From Scytolyngbya sp. HA4215-MV1 (GTDB lineage: Bacteria; Cyanobacteriota; Cyanobacteriia; Leptolyngbyales; Leptolyngbyaceae): 64,000 bases of DNA. The DNA lies in assembly GCA_019359045.1 (NCBI GenBank), contig JAHHIA010000004.1, forward strand, positions 434,001 through 498,000. The letters are read 5' to 3'. The notes under the pieces are model-generated. The model did no database searches, was not told where the DNA came from, and saw only the letters and a list, made by a program, of their open reading frames with translations. Shown here in pieces: positions 36,802 to 45,241 of this stretch. Numbering within the stretch: the first letter of the stretch is position 1; the number at the start of each line of letters is the position of its first letter. The translations under genes and the position numbers were made by a program.

Positions 36802-38640
36802 ATGAATTCTCCTGCTGATTCTCCACGGCTTGTTACAACTTCTAATCCTTTGCCCTCAGTTGTTGGAAGAGATGATTCCTCAGCGTTGGCAGCAAGTTTG
36901 TTTTTTATCCAGGAGGCATCAGGACGGTACTTATCTTTCTATTGGCGAGAGGGAGAGCGGTACGGTATCCAAGCGGAACGGGTCGTTGGCTCGTTGGTGA
37001 GCGATCTCTTTGGTCCTATGGCTTCGGAAGTTTACCTGGATGTGGTGCGTAGAGTCCTAGATGCTCAAACGCCCAAGCAATTCAAGTGCCTCTTTCGCTA
37101 CGAAAAGTACACCTTTTTATTTGAGTTAATTGTCAATCCCATCTTGTTGCCCGGGGGAATTGGTTCGGTCGTTTCGGTGGTTGGAAATTTTCTGTCTGAG
37201 CTAACACCCTCTACCCATGTGGTTGGATTGGACGATGAAATTACTTATCCGATCGCCTCTCCCAGTTTCGATCGCTATCAAGAATTGCTCACTCAAATTG
37301 CCTGGAATATTCGCCGCACGCTTGATCCAGGAACGATTTGGCAGCAAACAGTAAATGGGCTGGGGCAAGCATTAGAGGTCACCCGATGTATTATTTGCCC
37401 CTACAAAGGTAAAAGTTCAACCGTCAAGGTCGTGGCTGAATATTCTCAAGAGCCACTCAACTCGATGCTGGAAACTGAGTTAGAGCTTGAGAAACTCCCT
37501 TACCTGAGTCAGGCGATTTCAACCATGCAGCCAGTCAGCCTGGAAGGGGTAGAAGTTGAGTCGGGAGCGAACCTTTGCAAATCTTCCCGACAATCGATTT
37601 TGGCAGTTGCGACGTCCTACCAAGATCAACCCAATGGGCTGATTATTCTTTACCAATGCGATCGTCCTCGTTCCTGGAGCGAGGCGGAGCTGGAATTTAT
37701 GCAAGAATTGGCAGATCAGGTCGGTACCGCGATTGCTCATGCCACCCTGTTTACCGAGAGCCAAAATCTGGCAACCGAGCTGCAGCGAGTCAACGTGAGT
37801 ATGCTGCAAAAAAACCGCGAGTTGGAAGATGCTCGCCAACAAGCAGAGGAAGCGTCTCGGTTAAAGAGCGAGTTTCTGGCAAATACTTCGCATGAATTGC
37901 GCACGCCCCTGAATGGCATGATCGGCTTTCTAAAGCTGATTATGGATGGCATGGCAGATGATCCGAAAGAACAAGAAGAGTTTTTGTCAGAAGCCTATCG
38001 ATCGGCATTGCACTTGCTGAACATCATTAATGATGTGCTCGACATCGCCAAAATTGAAGCTGGCAAGATGCAGATTGAGCTAAGCCAGGTGAGTTTGGAC
38101 GAGCTGCTCAATGCGGTTGAAAACTTCACCCGTAGCCAGATTCAACAAAAGAATTTGAGTTTTGAAATCCAGAAGTTGCCAACTCACGATGAAATTATCG
38201 TCTTGGGCAATTACCAGCGTTTGCTTCAGGTCATGCTGAACTTAGTGGGGAATGCAATTAAATTCACCCATGAAGGTGGTATTACCATAAGCATTGAGTT
38301 GAGCCGTCGTAAGCCCGAAAGCCCCAGTTTAGTGAGAGTACGCGTCGCTGACACTGGCATTGGAGTTTCGTTGGATAAACAAGATAAGCTGTTTCAGTCG
38401 TTCAGTCAGGTCGATGGTTCCCGTACTCGCCAGTACGGCGGCACAGGATTGGGTCTCGCCATTTCTCAACGACTGGTCGAGGCGATGGGTGGCGAAGTGA
38501 ATTTTTACAGTATGGGCGAAGGTTTGGGTTCGACCGTGACGTTTACGGTGCCCTTGCATCGAGAGCCTGTATTGATTACCTCGGCGGCGCAGCCACCGTC
38601 TGAAGTGCTGGAACTACTGATTCAGCAAAATCAAAAATAG
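36802..38640 (+). CDS. PAS-GAF sensor histidine kinase
   Basis: 612 aa, soluble. A diverged PAS-like N-terminal domain (about 25-140, SLFFIQEASGRYLSFYW) is followed by GAF (about 160-325, CIICPYKGKSSTVKVVAEY and [21 protein letters not shown]). A coiled coil leads to HisKA ([21 protein letters not shown]) and HATPase_c (NLVGNAIKF, DTGIGVSLDK, GTGLGL). The GAF has no bilin-binding Cys-His motif. There is no receiver and no shared tail, so it belongs to a different subfamily from the cluster at 1-22 kb. It converges with the next gene, with one base between the stops. Signal and partner regulator are unknown. Confidence 0.93.
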   Translation: MNSPADSPRLVTTSNPLPSVVGRDDSSALAASLFFIQEASGRYLSFYWREGERYGIQAERVVGSLVSDLFGPMASEVYLDVVRRVLDAQTPKQFKCLFRYEKYTFLFELIVNPILLPGGIGSVVSVVGNFLSELTPSTHVVGLDDEITYPIASPSFDRYQELLTQIAWNIRRTLDPGTIWQQTVNGLGQALEVTRCIICPYKGKSSTVKVVAEYSQEPLNSMLETELELEKLPYLSQAISTMQPVSLEGVEVESGANLCKSSRQSILAVATSYQDQPNGLIILYQCDRPRSWSEAELEFMQELADQVGTAIAHATLFTESQNLATELQRVNVSMLQKNRELEDARQQAEEASRLKSEFLANTSHELRTPLNGMIGFLKLIMDGMADDPKEQEEFLSEAYRSALHLLNIINDVLDIAKIEAGKMQIELSQVSLDELLNAVENFTRSQIQQKNLSFEIQKLPTHDEIIVLGNYQRLLQVMLNLVGNAIKFTHEGGITISIELSRRKPESPSLVRVRVADTGIGVSLDKQDKLFQSFSQVDGSRTRQYGGTGLGLAISQRLVEAMGGEVNFYSMGEGLGSTVTFTVPLHREPVLITSAAQPPSEVLELLIQQNQK

Positions 38641-38641
38641 T

Positions 38642-41600
38642 TTACCAGGGGCTGCCAATAAGGGTGAAAGCTGCCCAATAAAAGGGATGACTCAAATTTG
38701 CCTGACGATGCTCGAATTCGGCAGGTAGGTGGAGTTTGTAGGGTTGCCATGGACCCTGAAGCTCGCCATCTTCGAGTTTAATTTGTCCAGTTAACATAGC
38801 AATTTGAGCTTTCTGCAAGGCTTCTGCTTTGATCCGAGCAGTTTTCAATTGTCGATAGAACTCGGTCATTAGCCCCAGAGTGCCCTCATCACTCACATAC
38901 CAAAGGCTTGCCAAAACCGACTTGACCCCTGCCTGAAAAGCAATACCCGCAAATCCTAGTTCTGCTTGCTCATTGCCAAACGCAGTTTGACACGCACTTA
39001 GAACGAGCAACTCAACCGGAGGATGGCTCCATCCTAAATCGCGCAATTGGTTAAGTTGCAATTGGGTATCCCAAAGCTGAATGTAAGAGTTACGAGAATT
39101 TCCACCTTGAAACTCACCATGAGTTGCTAAATGGATGATTTGGTAAGGTCTTTCTTGACGTTGAAGCTTTAAATTTTTGAGGGTGAAGGTTTGGTTGAGA
39201 AAAATTTCTCCATCCCAGAGATTATGGGTGATGCTGGATAATTCGACAGGAACCGCTGGCAGAGGGGGCTGATCTCGAAAAGTGGACGCGCCCATTGCCA
39301 AAACCTGGGCATTGGTCAAGGGTTCGTAGTGAGTGTTGGTTAAGCTGAGACTGGGAATGAGGGCAAGGCGATATTTTTGTACCAAAAACTGGTGTCCATC
39401 ATGAAGGGCTGCCATGGGAATACTACGTAACCCGTTATCCATGGCAAAGAGGAGTGTATCAATATTTTGGGCTTGTAGGTCTGCTGCGATCGGAGCGATC
39501 ATCCAGCGGTAAAGTTGTTGTGCAGAAGCTAGATAACTTGTGGTGCGAGTCTTTCGCGGATCGGAAACTTCTCGAACGAAAGTTTTGACGACGGCCATTA
39601 ATGTCTGGTGGTCTGCAACAGGTAGATTTTTGCTGATGGGTTTCATCCCTGGCATAAAGAGAACCAGCTCTAACTGTTCATTGTGGGCAAAGACATAGAG
39701 GATGGCGGGTCGGGTTTGAGTTTGTTGGGTGATATTATCCAGGGTTTGGGTAATGTTCTGAGCTGATAGCGGCTGGAAGTCTGATGCGTTTCCTAGATAT
39801 TGGGCAAATTGTTTTGAAAAGTTCTTTTCAGGCGTTGAAAGAGAACTTTCCATTGGGGGCGGGGTGGTTGCGATCGTTGTGTTGGGAATGAGTGTTTGAA
39901 CCGGGAGGAATATCTGCATGGGCTTAGGTACAACCTTCTGCGGTTCGGGCGGGTCCTGAGTCAAGATCCGAATGTTGTTTTGGATAATGCTACGGCTGTA
40001 GGATTGGGTTGGGGCGATCGTGTTGTCCGCGCTGCCGGTGATTGCTCCAACGGTGCCGTTGTTGCTGGGGTTGCCAATATTGAAGGCAACTGCATTGGAC
40101 CCCCCATGGTGGATAGTAATCGAGCCACCTCTGGTTCCTCCTGCTGTCGAAATACTGGCAAGAATGCCGTTGCGATCGACAAAGCTGCCTGTTGCCAAAA
40201 AGAAGCGATCGGTCGAGATATCGACATTGCCCCCCACCCCATTAGCACCCCCCTGAGTGTTGATCGAGTGCACGACGATATTGCCGTGCGGGTCGAGCCA
40301 GACCGATCCCCCATTGCCCACAGAAGCACTGGAATCGACTCTGCCCAGGGTAATGCTGTCTTTTGCCTGGACGATGATGGGTTGTCCTGGTGCACGCAGA
40401 TGATGGGCGGTGAGGGTGGCATCGCTGCTCAGCGCAATTCCACCCTCGGAGAAGACATCTTCCAGTCTAATGGCGTCATCAGCCGTGAGCAAAACTGGGG
40501 CATTTTGCCCGATTAGGGTACCTGTGGCTGTGATAGACCCCGATCGGGCAACGATCGCGGCGCTCTGGGTCAGTGTGGTGGTGCTATTAAGAGTAATGTC
40601 TCCGTGGGTCGTCACTTGGTTCGTAAAGAAGGCATTTTGGGCAGTGATCGAGAGTCCTTGCAGAGGTGTTTCATTGCCGATCGCTCCCTGAAACAAGAGC
40701 GTGCTGTTACTGGCATTAAAAGTCAAATGGTGAGCGCCGTTGATGTTGCCAGCAAAGGTAAGAGGGTTCGTACTAGTTGCCGTAATGCGAATATTTGCAT
40801 CTAGTTGAATGTTGCCAAAAAAGGTGAGCGGATCAGCCGTGGTGATATCGGTGGTCAGTAAGGTTGTGGGAAGTTGACGACTGGCAAAACTGGCACTGCC
40901 ATTGTCCTTGAGCGACAATCCTCCAGTCAGGGTAATGTTGCCATTGGGGGTGCTAAAAAGGGTGGGATCAGTTAGGACAATGGAGGCGATCGTCATATCC
41001 CCTGTTCCATTATTTCGGCCGATTTGCACCAGGCTAAAACCATCTGCTAGCGCTAACCAGTCAGTCGTGTTGAGATCCAGACTGCGGGTGTTGTTGCTGG
41101 CACCGACTCGAATCGACTGATCTGGGTCAAAGGGTTGCAAGAGTAGACTACCGTTGCCTCTTACAGAACGGCTTCCCCCCACTAAATCGATTTCGTTACT
41201 CGTCAGGGCAATGTTGCCAGTGCCAGCACTGCCTTGGGCTGCTACGCCACCCACAATCAGACGGTCACGAGCGGTGAGCGCGATCGTTCCTCCACTCCCC
41301 ACCGTTCCTGCCTGAGTCATTGACGCTGCACTAAAGTGATTACCCTGGATGGCAGCTCCATTCAACCAGAGCGTTCCTGCGTTACCCGCCATGCCAGTCT
41401 GACTGCTGGAATTGGCATTGAACTGGTTGCCCCCAATGGTGTTGGCGTTGAGCAGAAGCATGCCGCCTGCACCCGCTTGCCCAGATTGGCTGTTCGCAGA
41501 AACATCAAAATCAGTGCCAGTAATGCTGTGGGCAGTGAGATTGATGAAGCCCCCTGCTGCCGCAGTCCCCGCGGCTTGAGTAATAGAGGTTGCCGCAAGG

Positions 41601-44600
41601 TTGCCTTGCAGGACGATCGACCCAGTGGCATTGAGAGAAATTGTGCCCCCGTTCGCTGCATTGCCTACTCCCGTGGGCACCCCATTTGCCGCAGAGACGC
41701 GGCTCGAAGCATTGATTTCACCCGTGGTAATGTTACCCGTTTGGGCGATCAGGTGAATATTGCCGCCCAGCCCAGCATTACCATTGGCATCATTGATCGA
41801 AAAAGCAAGAATATTGCCAGTAGTCAGGTTGCCTATGGCATTGAGGCTAACCGTGCCAGCATTGCCGATCGTTTGCCCGGGTGCACTAGCCTGAGTTACC
41901 GCCGATAAGTTACCTGCCATGATGTCACCATCGATGGCAACCAGAGAAATTGCGCCTGCATTGCCCAATCCAGTCGGCGGATGACTGGTGTTGATATTGC
42001 CCACATGTAGACCAGCCGCCTGCAAGCTCACATTTTGTCCCCAAGCTTGAATGTCTTGAGTTTGAAGCAATTGGCTAGCGATTAAGTTCACTGGCCCCGC
42101 AACGTCGATCGCGCCATCAAAAACCACATTTTGGCTGGACACCGTTAAGCCTGTCCCAAAAATGCTGCCTCGAAAAGTACTGGTGCCTGTGCCAGCCAGT
42201 TGGGTGAAACCATTCAGCACCGAGCCGTTAACCGTTACATGATTGGCTTGGGTCACAAGCGTATTGGGGGTAAGATCTGCCGCCACGAACAAGTTACCGC
42301 TGCCTAAATCGAGGGTCAGCGTGTTGGCAACTTGTCCATGATTGCCCACGGTGCCGTTAAAGTTGAGATTGGCTCCCCCAGTGCGCAGAGTGATGGGAGC
42401 ACTGATTTGCCCATTGGCATTGAGATTGAAATTGCCACCCTGACTATCCAAATCGTTGAAGAAATCGTAAACGCCTGCAATGGTGATATCACCCCCGTGG
42501 GATGATACTTTGCCAAAGTTGGCAAATTGCCCAGTGGGGCCGGTCTGGATGTTAATGTTACCTCCTCCCGTCGAGAGGACGTGACTGGCAATGGTGTTGC
42601 CAATGAGGGTGAGGTGACTGGTACGTCCCTGCCCGAGCAGCGGAAAGCTTAGATTGAGTGTGCCTTGGGGCGATCGCAAGGTCAGTGGATCAAAAAAGTT
42701 GATCGCACTTGCCATGCCGAGCATTCCACTGCCATCTATTCGCCCGATCGTGATATCGGCAAAGCCATCTTGAAGGGCAGCAAAATCACCCATGGTCAGG
42801 CTCAGGGTACCGGGTGTGTTACCAGTTCCCCCCAGCGTTATAGGGCGGGAGGCGATCGTTGGCTGTAACGTGAGCGTACCTGATCCGGTCACGGAATTGG
42901 CACCGCCCCAAAAATCAATGCTGTCGGCAATGATGGTGAGATGATGCGCCCCTGCCGAGATACGACCAAAGCCCCAACTGGTGGCATTGGGTCCTCCAAA
43001 AATGGCATCACCTATCAGTTCGATCGGACGAGTGATTTGATATGCCCCATTGGTGATGTAGCCCCCGGCAAACCGATAGAGGCTGGCAGTCCAGTTGGCT
43101 CCAGCTAAGGGGGTAATGCCACCCACTAAGCCATTGAAAGTGACAATCCCATTGCCAGCATTAAGCGAGAGAAAATGATTGCCATTAACCGTGCCGTTGA
43201 ATCGAATGTCAATGTTCGTGCTGTTTTGGTTGGTCAAGATGACATCCTGATTCAGCAGATAGGCACCCTGGACGACGATCTCGTTGTTATCGGTGGCAAG
43301 ATTGCCCGTTGAAATACTGCCATTCCAGGCATTCAGACTGACTTTGCCGCCCACGCCTGTCAGGTTGCCATAAGCAGCGATCGATCCTGTCAAAAGATTT
43401 CCTTGGCTTGCAATGAGGGTGACATTGCCGCCCCCACCATTGGCGAGTGAAAACGATGCCAGATTACCCGTGACGATCGAGCCATTCTCACTGATCAGAC
43501 TGATCTCGCCTCCGAAACCATTGCCACTTAGCGCATTGATATTACCGATTTGGAGATTGCCACCTGCGTAGATGGTAACGTTGCCCCCATTGCCACTCGG
43601 AGCCGCTGGAAAAAATGCCAGGGTGTTGATATCGCCTGTGGTAATTGTGCCGGGAGCCGATAAGATCACGGGTCCCCCATTGCCGGGTTGGGCTTGGGCT
43701 GAGGTAGCGATCGTCCCAGTCACTCTAATATTGCCAGGAACCACTGTGGGTGAAGGCGCAACAGTTGAACCACTACCCTGGGGCGGCACCAAGCTGCTCA
43801 ACACCGGTACCCCCGCCCGTAAAATGAGCGCCTGGCTACTTGTCAAAATTGCGGTGTCTGGATTGGGACTTCCCAGGGCAGCATCTGCACCGGTGATGGT
43901 GAGATTGCCCCCGACCAAGATGCTACCCATCGCTTCGACTTTGAGGGCAACGCCGATATAGTCTCCCAAGATGACATCTCCCCCAGCGCTAATCATGGGG
44001 GCATAAAAACTAGCAAATCGTCCTGGACTGCCTGCCAAATTGAGCAGAGAAAAATTACCGCCGCTCGAAAAAAAGGAATCGCCAAAAATCACCCCATCAC
44101 TGACCAGGTTCAATGCACCCCCACTTTGAAACGGCGTGATGGAATGATTGAACGCCAGAATATCAATGCCCTGGTTGCCCTGAATGTACAGATTTCTTCC
44201 CGCTTTTGCGAGAAAAGGCGTCGTGACACTCTCTCGAATTCGCACCATGTTGGCAGCCAGCAGGGTCAAATCTTCCGTTGTCTGGAGTTGGCTTTCGACC
44301 AGGGTTAGGTTTTGAGTTGCCGATAGCCAGGCAGTTTCGCTATTCACTGCTTTGGCAACAATGTCTCCAGTTGAGACCGCAAGACCTGAGCCGGTTAGTT
44401 CTACCTGCCCGCTGGCAGTGAGGGTGAGTCCAGTAGCATGGGTAATGTTGCCCCCAGTCAGCAATTGCGGCAAGCTCAGAGAAGGAATGGGTAAAGCGGA
44501 GGCTGGGATGGGTTGTAGATCCAGGCTCAGCAACCCCCCGACCTGACTAATCCGTACCTGACTGCTACCAGGAACCGTGGCGATCGTCACTTGCCCTGCC

Positions 44601-45241
44601 GGAGCCGAGAGCCGCCCCGTACTGACCACGGTGCCTCCGATCAAGGTTAAATTTTGCTGATTAGGAACCGCTAAATCGCCGGAATTAACGATCGCCCCTG
44701 GTTGTGCCATCGCAAACCCAAATCCAGTCGGAGTGCCAATCAAAGTGGAGCTATCGTTTGTACCAATCCAAGTAAAATCGCCCGCGCCAAATCCAATGCT
44801 GTTGGCGGTGGTAGCAGTAAATGATGCGGGCACATTTAAGCGGGCATTGGCACCAAAGATAATACCTGCCGGATTCATGAGATAGAGGTTCGCATTGCTA
44901 CCCGTGACCTGAATCAAGCCCTGAATCACCGATGCATCGCCACCAATTACTCGCCCCAAAATATTTTGAATCGAAGGGGCTGAGAGAAAATTGGCGATTT
45001 GTCCCTGGCTCAACCCAAAGCGATCAAAACTTTGGAAAAGGTTAACCCCATCGTTGGAAACACTGCCGCCGCTAATATCAAAGCGATTGCCATGAGCAGT
45101 TACCAGGGTGCCAATGCCATCGTTTGCTGGGGTAATCGATTGCGCCCATCCCGGCTCAACCGCCGCAATTTCTAGCCAAACGGGTACGGTACCCAGCAGC
45201 ACTCCTAAAATACCGATCGCTGACTTCATAGGAAAATACAT
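38642..45241 (-). CDS. secreted haemagglutinin-type (TPS) protein with C-terminal CHAT protease domain
   Basis: 2199 aa. A signal peptide (AIGILGVLLGTVPVWLEIA, ending near GWAQS) is followed by a two-partner-secretion domain (about 37-160) with GGSVSNDGVNLFQSFDRFGL, NLYLMNPAGIIFGANARL and SFTATTANSIGFG. From about 250 to 1780 the protein is a long repetitive Gly/Asn/Thr-rich beta-helix (NGGTISLNATGSI and variants). The last ~350 residues form a CHAT domain of the caspase clan: the His in HLATHGEF (near 2038) and the Cys in VLSACQTAFG (near 2083) are both present. An ATG at 45229 (MKSAIG) is an alternative start; neither has a clear SD. The expected TpsB transporter is not in the window. It would be a surface or secreted protein with a potentially active protease end. 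Confidence 0.92.
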   Translation of the reverse strand: MYFPMKSAIGILGVLLGTVPVWLEIAAVEPGWAQSITPANDGIGTLVTAHGNRFDISGGSVSNDGVNLFQSFDRFGLSQGQIANFLSAPSIQNILGRVIGGDASVIQGLIQVTGSNANLYLMNPAGIIFGANARLNVPASFTATTANSIGFGAGDFTWIGTNDSSTLIGTPTGFGFAMAQPGAIVNSGDLAVPNQQNLTLIGGTVVSTGRLSAPAGQVTIATVPGSSQVRISQVGGLLSLDLQPIPASALPIPSLSLPQLLTGGNITHATGLTLTASGQVELTGSGLAVSTGDIVAKAVNSETAWLSATQNLTLVESQLQTTEDLTLLAANMVRIRESVTTPFLAKAGRNLYIQGNQGIDILAFNHSITPFQSGGALNLVSDGVIFGDSFFSSGGNFSLLNLAGSPGRFASFYAPMISAGGDVILGDYIGVALKVEAMGSILVGGNLTITGADAALGSPNPDTAILTSSQALILRAGVPVLSSLVPPQGSGSTVAPSPTVVPGNIRVTGTIATSAQAQPGNGGPVILSAPGTITTGDINTLAFFPAAPSGNGGNVTIYAGGNLQIGNINALSGNGFGGEISLISENGSIVTGNLASFSLANGGGGNVTLIASQGNLLTGSIAAYGNLTGVGGKVSLNAWNGSISTGNLATDNNEIVVQGAYLLNQDVILTNQNSTNIDIRFNGTVNGNHFLSLNAGNGIVTFNGLVGGITPLAGANWTASLYRFAGGYITNGAYQITRPIELIGDAIFGGPNATSWGFGRISAGAHHLTIIADSIDFWGGANSVTGSGTLTLQPTIASRPITLGGTGNTPGTLSLTMGDFAALQDGFADITIGRIDGSGMLGMASAINFFDPLTLRSPQGTLNLSFPLLGQGRTSHLTLIGNTIASHVLSTGGGNINIQTGPTGQFANFGKVSSHGGDITIAGVYDFFNDLDSQGGNFNLNANGQISAPITLRTGGANLNFNGTVGNHGQVANTLTLDLGSGNLFVAADLTPNTLVTQANHVTVNGSVLNGFTQLAGTGTSTFRGSIFGTGLTVSSQNVVFDGAIDVAGPVNLIASQLLQTQDIQAWGQNVSLQAAGLHVGNINTSHPPTGLGNAGAISLVAIDGDIMAGNLSAVTQASAPGQTIGNAGTVSLNAIGNLTTGNILAFSINDANGNAGLGGNIHLIAQTGNITTGEINASSRVSAANGVPTGVGNAANGGTISLNATGSIVLQGNLAATSITQAAGTAAAGGFINLTAHSITGTDFDVSANSQSGQAGAGGMLLLNANTIGGNQFNANSSSQTGMAGNAGTLWLNGAAIQGNHFSAASMTQAGTVGSGGTIALTARDRLIVGGVAAQGSAGTGNIALTSNEIDLVGGSRSVRGNGSLLLQPFDPDQSIRVGASNNTRSLDLNTTDWLALADGFSLVQIGRNNGTGDMTIASIVLTDPTLFSTPNGNITLTGGLSLKDNGSASFASRQLPTTLLTTDITTADPLTFFGNIQLDANIRITATSTNPLTFAGNINGAHHLTFNASNSTLLFQGAIGNETPLQGLSITAQNAFFTNQVTTHGDITLNSTTTLTQSAAIVARSGSITATGTLIGQNAPVLLTADDAIRLEDVFSEGGIALSSDATLTAHHLRAPGQPIIVQAKDSITLGRVDSSASVGNGGSVWLDPHGNIVVHSINTQGGANGVGGNVDISTDRFFLATGSFVDRNGILASISTAGGTRGGSITIHHGGSNAVAFNIGNPSNNGTVGAITGSADNTIAPTQSYSRSIIQNNIRILTQDPPEPQKVVPKPMQIFLPVQTLIPNTTIATTPPPMESSLSTPEKNFSKQFAQYLGNASDFQPLSAQNITQTLDNITQQTQTRPAILYVFAHNEQLELVLFMPGMKPISKNLPVADHQTLMAVVKTFVREVSDPRKTRTTSYLASAQQLYRWMIAPIAADLQAQNIDTLLFAMDNGLRSIPMAALHDGHQFLVQKYRLALIPSLSLTNTHYEPLTNAQVLAMGASTFRDQPPLPAVPVELSSITHNLWDGEIFLNQTFTLKNLKLQRQERPYQIIHLATHGEFQGGNSRNSYIQLWDTQLQLNQLRDLGWSHPPVELLVLSACQTAFGNEQAELGFAGIAFQAGVKSVLASLWYVSDEGTLGLMTEFYRQLKTARIKAEALQKAQIAMLTGQIKLEDGELQGPWQPYKLHLPAEFEHRQANLSHPFYWAAFTLIGSPW

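What the first reader, a model, noticed from the sequence alone, without database searches (positions are those of the whole stretch)
38642..45241. TPS-secreted beta-helix fused to a CHAT caspase-like domain
The protein has a signal peptide, an N-terminal haemagglutinin secretion domain, a ~1500-residue repetitive beta-helix and an apparently intact CHAT His-Cys pair. CHAT proteases are usually cytosolic and linked to cell death or defence; here one would be carried on the cell surface or released. It could be a contact-dependent effector, a processing protease for the fibre, or a sensor. No TpsB partner is in the window.
Basis: partly seen in the sequence, partly recalled or inferred. Interest (0 to 1): 0.62.

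Follow-up and report, generated by a model that had tools for sequence, protein, structure and literature searches.

The report
Exported caspase-like protease on cyanobacterial fibre
A giant cyanobacterial surface-fibre protein ends in an apparently intact caspase-like protease domain, and it is one of a sizeable family of such proteins that look built to carry a protease out of the cell's interior, though neither export nor cutting has been tested.

Summary
The 2199-aa minus-strand ORF has a signal peptide, a TPS secretion domain (43-236), a repetitive beta-helical region and a C-terminal CHAT domain (1905-2197) with His2041/Cys2084. It is not a one-off: this cyanobacterial genome holds six TPS-CHAT ORFs, and the CHAT subfamily occurs in 65 of 291 sampled Cyanobacteriota genomes. 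His and Cys are kept in 94 of 94 rows. The CHAT module models at pLDDT 93; the best solved matches are Csx29/TPR-CHAT and separase. Cys2084 is the protein's only cysteine. In 59 fused relatives the catalytic Cys is the sole Cys in 33, and 54 have odd counts: this fits an exported protein with one unpaired, functional thiol. TpsB genes lie elsewhere in the genome, two beside paralogues. The premise that CHAT proteases are usually cytosolic does not fit this genome: 14 of 19 CHAT ORFs without TPS also have a signal-like segment near the start. No immunity gene is linked (6 of 54), so a CDI-type toxin is unlikely. Export, activity and substrate are untested. Three of six own-genome paralogues lack a clear signal peptide.

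The parts
38642..45241 (-). TPS-beta-helix-CHAT exoprotein gene, 2199 aa
   Evidence: ORF; Pfam TPS and CHAT
45137..45241 (-). signal peptide, about residues 1-35 (inferred cleavage near GWA-QS)
   Evidence: h-region mean hydropathy 2.27 (13 residues) and 2.45 (11 residues); heuristic only
44534..45115 (-). TPS secretion domain, residues 43-236
   Evidence: PF05860, 143 bits; model matches the secretion domains of HpmA, HxuA and FHA
39875..44533 (-). repetitive beta-helical region and linker, residues 237-1789
   Evidence: for residues up to 594; composition only beyond; linkers of the relatives printed show no shared motif by eye
38645..39874 (-). CHAT protease module, residues 1790-2199 (two-part, separase/Csx29-like; Pfam CHAT 1905-2197)
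39119..39121 (-). catalytic His2041 codon (HLATHG)
   Evidence: role assigned by homology
38990..38992 (-). catalytic Cys2084 codon (LSACQT), the only Cys of the protein
   Evidence: role assigned by homology

Best explanation
The gene encodes a TpsA-type exoprotein that carries a separase/Csx29-type cysteine protease at its extreme C terminus. The chain leaves the cytoplasm through Sec, is recognised through its TPS domain by a TpsB encoded elsewhere in the genome, and is threaded to the surface as a beta-helical stalk with the CHAT module last. The CHAT module folds outside the cytoplasm and, when its active site is switched on, cleaves proteins of the cell's own envelope or of its neighbours. 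Shown by computation: domains, fold, conserved dyad, the single Cys, TpsB genes in the same genome, wide distribution in Cyanobacteriota. Inferred: export itself, proteolytic activity, acting in trans. Unknown: substrate, trigger, and whether the CHAT end lies on the surface or stays on the periplasmic side of the TpsB pore.
For: TPS and CHAT domains. Model pLDDT 93.0, pTM 0.93. VIA-align: Csx29/TPR-CHAT Z 27.6 (rmsd 3.1, 328 aligned), separase Z 25.8 (rmsd 3.0, 316), gingipains 18.1-18.7. H and C in 94 of 94 rows. The catalytic Cys is the only Cys of the window protein and of 33 of 59 fused ORFs; Cys counts are odd in 54 of 59, and on average in 20.4 of 21 random representatives of 75%-identity clusters, 27.7 of 30 at 85%. 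In this genome 6 of 6 TPS-CHAT counts are odd and 8 of 8 TPS-only counts even, Fisher P 3e-4. A hydrophobic segment precedes TPS in 56 of 59 fused ORFs by threshold and, counting two more by eye, in all 58 with an intact 5' end. TpsB in 65 of 65 genomes with this CHAT subfamily, against 152 of 226 without. In the tree the nearest own-genome CHAT group has five members, each with a TPS or TpsB gene beside it or one gene away. Stand-alone relatives with signal-like N termini fit action in trans.
Against: No export or activity data. Of the six own-genome paralogues, three (C14, C17, C11) lack a clear signal peptide near TPS. No TpsB gene is linked to this copy. The Cys argument assumes pairing; disulfides were not measured, 5 of 59 fused ORFs have even counts, and one cluster of 14 near relatives supplies most of the rows with three Cys. 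Genomes are related, so counts are not independent.
Confidence: 0.58

Rival explanations
1. Self-processing: the CHAT module is a built-in release protease that cuts its own linker or another part of the fibre after translocation, shedding the beta-helix as SphB1 does for FHA or LapG for CdrA.
For: The chain ends with the CHAT module: the last Cys lies 114-137 residues from the C terminus in 59 of 59 fused ORFs, so no further domain follows. TPS proteins without CHAT in this genome carry a Cys pair within the last ~120 residues in 6 of 8 cases, like the disulfide anchor described for HMW1/HxuA, whereas none of the six TPS-CHAT proteins has a pair behind the CHAT: CHAT takes the place of the anchor. 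Passages of PMC5422565 describe release proteases and anchors.
Against: Linkers are variable, often Pro-rich, with no shared motif by eye in the six own and 30 other sequences printed, though orthologous Craspases are reported to cut a non-conserved site (PMC11106740, title and start of abstract in the listing). Stand-alone relatives have no fibre to release.
Confidence: 0.22
2. Contact-dependent toxin: the CHAT module is the C-terminal toxin of a CDI or polymorphic-toxin system delivered into neighbours.
For: C-terminal-most caspase-like domains are proposed as toxin domains in polymorphic toxins (PMC3482391, section 11 read). PMC3501461 speculates on fratricide for extracellular metacaspases (passages).
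Against: No consistent downstream gene: 6 of 54 fused loci have a same-strand ORF of at least 80 aa starting within 120 bp, and these differ in length (genes further away not examined). In the window the next gene is convergent, with one base between the two stop codons. All six paralogues end in the same CHAT type instead of swapped C termini.
Confidence: 0.1
3. Non-proteolytic module: the CHAT fold serves as a structural plug or binding head.
For: Some caspase-like repeats in polymorphic toxins lack catalytic residues (PMC3482391 section 11); here no activity is shown.
Against: H and C invariant in 94 of 94 rows, while other Cys are rare in the chain.
Confidence: 0.1

Closest known systems
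Csx29 / TPR-CHAT of type III-E CRISPR (Craspase)
   Same: Same two-part CHAT fold over 328 residues (Z 27.6, rmsd 3.1); His-Cys spacing 43, as H615/C658 in PMC10028731 (passages).
   Different: Csx29 is a CRISPR partner with an N-terminal TPR region; here a signal peptide, TPS domain and beta-helix precede the module, and no TPR family was matched. About 13% identity.
Separase
   Same: Fold match Z 25.8 (rmsd 3.0, 316 aligned), His-Cys dyad.
   Different: Eukaryotic cohesin protease; about 13% identity.
Gingipains (RgpB, Kgp)
   Same: Caspase-fold cysteine proteases (Z 18.1-18.7); that they work outside the cell is recalled.
   Different: Other family and secretion route (recalled); no TPS domain.
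TPS exoproteins HpmA, HxuA, FHA, EtpA, HMW1
   Same: TPS domain matches the secretion domains of HpmA (Z 20.2, rmsd 2.5), HxuA (17.2, 3.3) and FHA (16.8, 2.3); longer matches to EtpA, HMW1 and HxuA have rmsd 8.9-15.4.
   Different: Recalled: none of these ends in a CHAT protease.
LepA of Pseudomonas aeruginosa
   Same: A TPS-secreted protease is already known (PMC5422565, passages).
   Different: Recalled: not a CHAT protease.
HetF
   Same: Cyanobacterial CHAT protein, putative protease; mutating the conserved active site abolishes function (PMC8406250, passages).
   Different: CHAT at the N terminus with TM and TPR segments; a divisome protein.

Membership tests
Two-partner secretion exoprotein (TpsA, type Vb) | Sec signal peptide | tested here: met
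   (hydropathy and cleavage-like GWA-QS; heuristic, no dedicated predictor)
Two-partner secretion exoprotein (TpsA, type Vb) | N-terminal TPS domain | tested here: met
   143 bits, cut-off 33.5; Z 20.2 to HpmA, rmsd 2.5, 183 aligned
Two-partner secretion exoprotein (TpsA, type Vb) | Beta-helical passenger | tested here: inconclusive
   beta-solenoid for residues 35-594; the rest not modelled
Two-partner secretion exoprotein (TpsA, type Vb) | TpsB transporter in the genome | tested here: met
   five PF03865 matches over cut-off; none beside this gene
Two-partner secretion exoprotein (TpsA, type Vb) | Outer-membrane translocation | not testable with these tools
   needs fractionation
CHAT protease | CHAT profile match | tested here: met
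   PF12770, 241 bits, positions 2-289 of 289
CHAT protease | His-Cys dyad | tested here: met
   94 of 94 rows; for the window
CHAT protease | Separase-like two-part caspase fold | tested here: met
CHAT protease | Proteolytic activity | not testable with these tools
   needs an assay
CDI / polymorphic toxin | Cognate immunity gene directly downstream | tested here: not met
   6 of 54, lengths unlike; the window's neighbour is convergent
CDI / polymorphic toxin | Variable, swapped C-terminal toxin domains | tested here: not met
   all six own TPS-CHAT paralogues end in the same CHAT subfamily, the other five 56-70% identical to the window's; C termini of the eight TPS proteins without CHAT were checked only for Pfam families in six of them, none of which showed a toxin family
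Craspase (type III-E CRISPR) | Fixed partner Cas7-11/gRAMP | not tested
   no targeted search; the seven neighbouring ORFs scanned are other families

The most novel reading that the evidence does not exclude
An outside-in protease switch: the beta-helix is a surface antenna, while the folded CHAT module stays on the periplasmic side as the plug that replaces the usual C-terminal disulfide anchor. Contact, pulling or a redox change on the lone thiol would then activate the protease, which frees the fibre or cuts envelope proteins. This would make TPS-CHAT a cyanobacterial extracytoplasmic counterpart of Csx29-type conditional proteases.
Probability: 0.13. Interest if true: 0.8.

Novelty: new variant of a known kind. 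Interest (0 to 1): 0.5.

Why it matters
CHAT proteases are mostly discussed as intracellular switches of defence and death. A broad cyanobacterial family that exports them with an intact dyad would mean that caspase-like proteolysis is also an envelope or community function in these phototrophs. The single-thiol design makes clean tests possible: one Cys-to-Ala change, or one thiol label, addresses the whole 2199-aa protein.

Tried and rejected
Literature: of the ten searches made, eight bore on CHAT, TPS or caspase-like proteins in cyanobacteria. The listings of those eight showed no paper on a TPS-CHAT protein; the three that asked for both parts together gave 0, 3 and 0 papers, and the three, by title and abstract start, are on other subjects. 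Not all listed papers were opened. This is open-licence PMC only and no proof of absence; the architecture may well be visible in domain databases. The other two searches were on DUF928 and Csx29. PMC9895726 (passages) lists a Nostoc CHAT protein with peptide SLSLLGGTVV, which resembles the stretch LTLIGGTVV here. It is one short peptide with listed value 0.012 in a water extract, so I do not use it as proof of secretion.

Sequence search of PDB chains with the CHAT alignment gave nothing useful (best E 0.47); the fold comparison was needed. PADLOC gave only a weak BovA match (28.7 bits); I do not read it as a defence gene. Phage records: no match of the CHAT module. Plasmids: 143 records with relatives, all under 60% identity; only the best place was opened, a 1353-bp gene, too short to be a TPS fusion.

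A linked operon was expected but not found in the window: the flanking genes are a convergent histidine kinase, a divergent DUF6816 gene, a GGDEF-EAL protein and pheS. DUF928 genes abut several CHAT genes elsewhere in the genome, but DUF928 appears in only 3 of the 80 loci, so I do not make it part of this system.

A first count of cluster representatives (23 of 23 odd) was biased, since the rows had been sorted by Cys count before picking.

TPS-only ORFs of the 80 loci were considered as a further cysteine control and dropped after I had seen them: six complete ones had 0, 0, 1, 3, 0 and 5 Cys, so three are odd. Each has a CHAT ORF without TPS behind it in the same locus, and some hold undetermined residues, so they look like split fused genes. 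The own-genome control (8 of 8 even) rests on few genes. Five own CHAT ORFs were left out of the tree (four divergent, one truncated), and 87 relatives were thinned to 38 at 78% identity, rows with X skipped. The tree is a quick one, rooted at the midpoint, with low support inside the fused clade and warnings about long branches among the other own CHATs.

Active-site distance could not be measured: no model coordinates were found in the Python box.
Full report
What is there. The ORF at 38642-45241 (-) encodes 2199 aa. Pfam finds the TPS secretion domain at 43-236 (143 bits) and CHAT at 1905-2197 (241 bits, profile positions 2-289 of 289). A hydrophobic core at residues 9-21 is followed by GWA-QS. 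The catalytic candidates are H2041 (HLATHG) and C2084 (LSACQT).

Fold. With 44 sequences (A2) AlphaFold models residues 1790-2199 at pLDDT 93.0, pTM 0.93. In the second look at Foldseek's PDB matches, Csx29/TPR-CHAT chains come first (7y84_C, Z 27.6, rmsd 3.1, 328 aligned), with separase close behind (5fby_A, Z 25.8, rmsd 3.0, 316 aligned) and gingipains at 18.1-18.7. The best alignment spans model residues 4-410, so both the pseudo-caspase half (CHAT1) and the active half (CHAT2) described for Csx29 seem present. H2041 to C2084 is 43 residues, as H615 to C658 in Csx29 (PMC10028731, passages). Residues 35-594 (A3, 25 sequences) model as an all-beta structure at pLDDT 78.5, pTM 0.55, with a poor stretch at 192-258 of the model. 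Its first ~210 residues match the secretion domains of HpmA (Z 20.2, rmsd 2.5), HxuA (17.2, 3.3) and FHA (16.8, 2.3); residues 256-560 match unrelated beta-solenoids (best Z 14.9, rmsd 3.4, 217 aligned). Matches over the whole length, to EtpA, HMW1 and HxuA, have rmsd 8.9-15.4 and only suggest a shared architecture.

A family, not a singleton. In the same genome PF12770 gives 27 matches, PF05860 14 and PF03865 (TpsB) six, five of them over cut-off. These fall on 25 CHAT-bearing ORFs, six of which also carry TPS. A profile of the six CHAT modules scores them at 602-628 bits and the other own CHATs at 252 or less (the six built the profile). Two of the six lie head-to-head with a TpsB gene (C31 and C14). 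Of these 80 main ORFs, 53 contain TPS, 12 are cut by the end of the locus and 15 contain no TPS. Of the 15, eight are 452-619-aa stand-alone CHATs with a signal-like start by eye; the others look like broken fusions. In 291 Cyanobacteriota genomes the subfamily is found in 65, in 44 of 112 genera (at most 7 candidates scored per genome). Of the 150 listed matches that I transcribed, 111 lie in open frames of at least 780 aa, 35 in frames of 430-669 aa and 4 between; the listing was cut.

Is it an enzyme? H and C are present in 94 of 94 rows, six of them from this genome. The cysteine pattern points the same way. The window protein has one Cys in 2199 residues, the catalytic one, against 0.90% Cys in other ORFs of the fetched regions. 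Of 59 distinct fused ORFs in the loci, 33 have the catalytic Cys as the only Cys from the TPS start on; the others have 3 (19 ORFs), 4 (3), 2 (2) or 5 (2). Of these 26, 23 hold a pair 5-8 residues apart, 14 of them in one cluster of close relatives. Counts are odd in 54 of 59, and on average in 20.4 of 21 random representatives at 75% identity (27.7 of 30 at 85%). In this genome all six TPS-CHAT proteins have odd counts (1, 3, 3, 3, 3, 5) and all eight TPS proteins without CHAT even ones (0, 0, 2, 2, 2, 4, 4, 4), Fisher P 3e-4. I read this as paired structural Cys plus one free nucleophile in an oxidising compartment. It is an inference; disulfides were not measured, and six TPS-only ORFs from the loci, three of them with odd counts, were set aside as split genes.

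Is it exported? In the loci, 56 of 59 fused ORFs have a hydrophobic segment before TPS by a fixed threshold; two of the three misses look like signal peptides by eye and the third is the only one with a cut 5' end. In control stretches of the same proteins 28 of 1180 passed. In the window's own genome only three of six are clear (window, C31, C15:142); C17 has a weak segment at its start, C11 none that I saw, and C14 has a hydrophobic stretch behind an N-terminal glycosyltransferase domain, some 200 residues before TPS. All 65 genomes with the subfamily have a TpsB match at E 1e-8, against 152 of 226 others, P 3e-10; relatedness is not corrected for. By eye in the truncated listings, seven further genomes have a TpsB match within about 6 kb of a CHAT match (G019, G108, G113, G123, G189, G207, G270).

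CHATs in this genome look mostly exported. By hydropathy, 14 of 19 CHAT ORFs without TPS have a signal-like segment in the first 90 residues of the called ORF; four do not and C7 is unclear. In the tree (58 rows, quick method) the fused and stand-alone forms make one supported group (98), next to a group of five own CHATs (98), C23, C19, C16, C31 and C25. Each of these five has a TPS or TpsB gene beside it or one DUF928 gene away. So the fusion seems to have grown out of CHATs that already worked with TPS systems.

How it may work. I favour an exported, conditionally active protease on a fibre. Csx29 is held inactive until a region next to its CHAT moves (passages), so a CHAT on a beta-helix could be gated by what the fibre binds; this is analogy. 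Self-release is the main rival: six of eight TPS proteins without CHAT here carry a Cys pair within their last ~120 residues, like the anchor described for HMW1/HxuA (passages), and the six CHAT proteins have none behind the CHAT. Four of those six do have a Cys pair 345-431 residues from the end, in or just ahead of the CHAT module. A CDI-type toxin is disfavoured by the missing immunity gene (6 of 54) and by uniform C termini.

Novelty. Both parts are known kinds, and a TPS-secreted protease exists (LepA). I found no paper on TPS-CHAT in the searches named under Tried and rejected. I therefore call it a new variant of a known kind, interest 0.5: a widespread export of CHAT proteases would be surprising, but the window copy is one of many.

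Noticed in passing
L051:6569-13012 (-) (own genome C14:124568-131011): A paralogue in which a family-2 glycosyltransferase domain (6-165) is fused in one ORF ahead of TPS-CHAT, with a hydrophobic stretch between; it lies head-to-head with a TpsB gene.
   Followed up: partly
L048, L049, L057, L059, L062, L073 (own genome): DUF928 genes lie directly beside CHAT ORFs at six places (C31 twice, C16 twice, C15, C25); DUF928 has 20 matches in this genome, 19 over cut-off.
   Followed up: partly
own genome TPS proteins without CHAT (L060, L062, L064, L068, L069, L070): Six of eight have a Cys pair within the last ~120 residues, like the anchor described for HMW1/HxuA.
   Followed up: partly
stand-alone relatives L124, L148, L150, L160, L171, L172, L173: They keep a second Cys 264-266 residues from the C terminus, absent from the window protein; unexplained.
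   Followed up: no
window 1748-27184: A dense run of sensory genes: hybrid histidine kinases with CHASE2, PAS and GAF domains, a phytochrome and a multi-receiver GGDEF regulator.
   Followed up: no
window 38638-38644: The stop codons of the convergent histidine kinase and of the TPS-CHAT gene have one base between them.
   Followed up: no
L161:2318-4177 (+): A relative of 619 aa with a Cys-containing N-terminal extension behind a signal-like start; it resembles COP23 (recalled, not searched).
   Followed up: no
L058:14956-17115 (-) (own genome C10): A Peptidase_C14 caspase-domain protein lies near two CHAT genes and a partial CHAT match with a stop inside.
   Followed up: no
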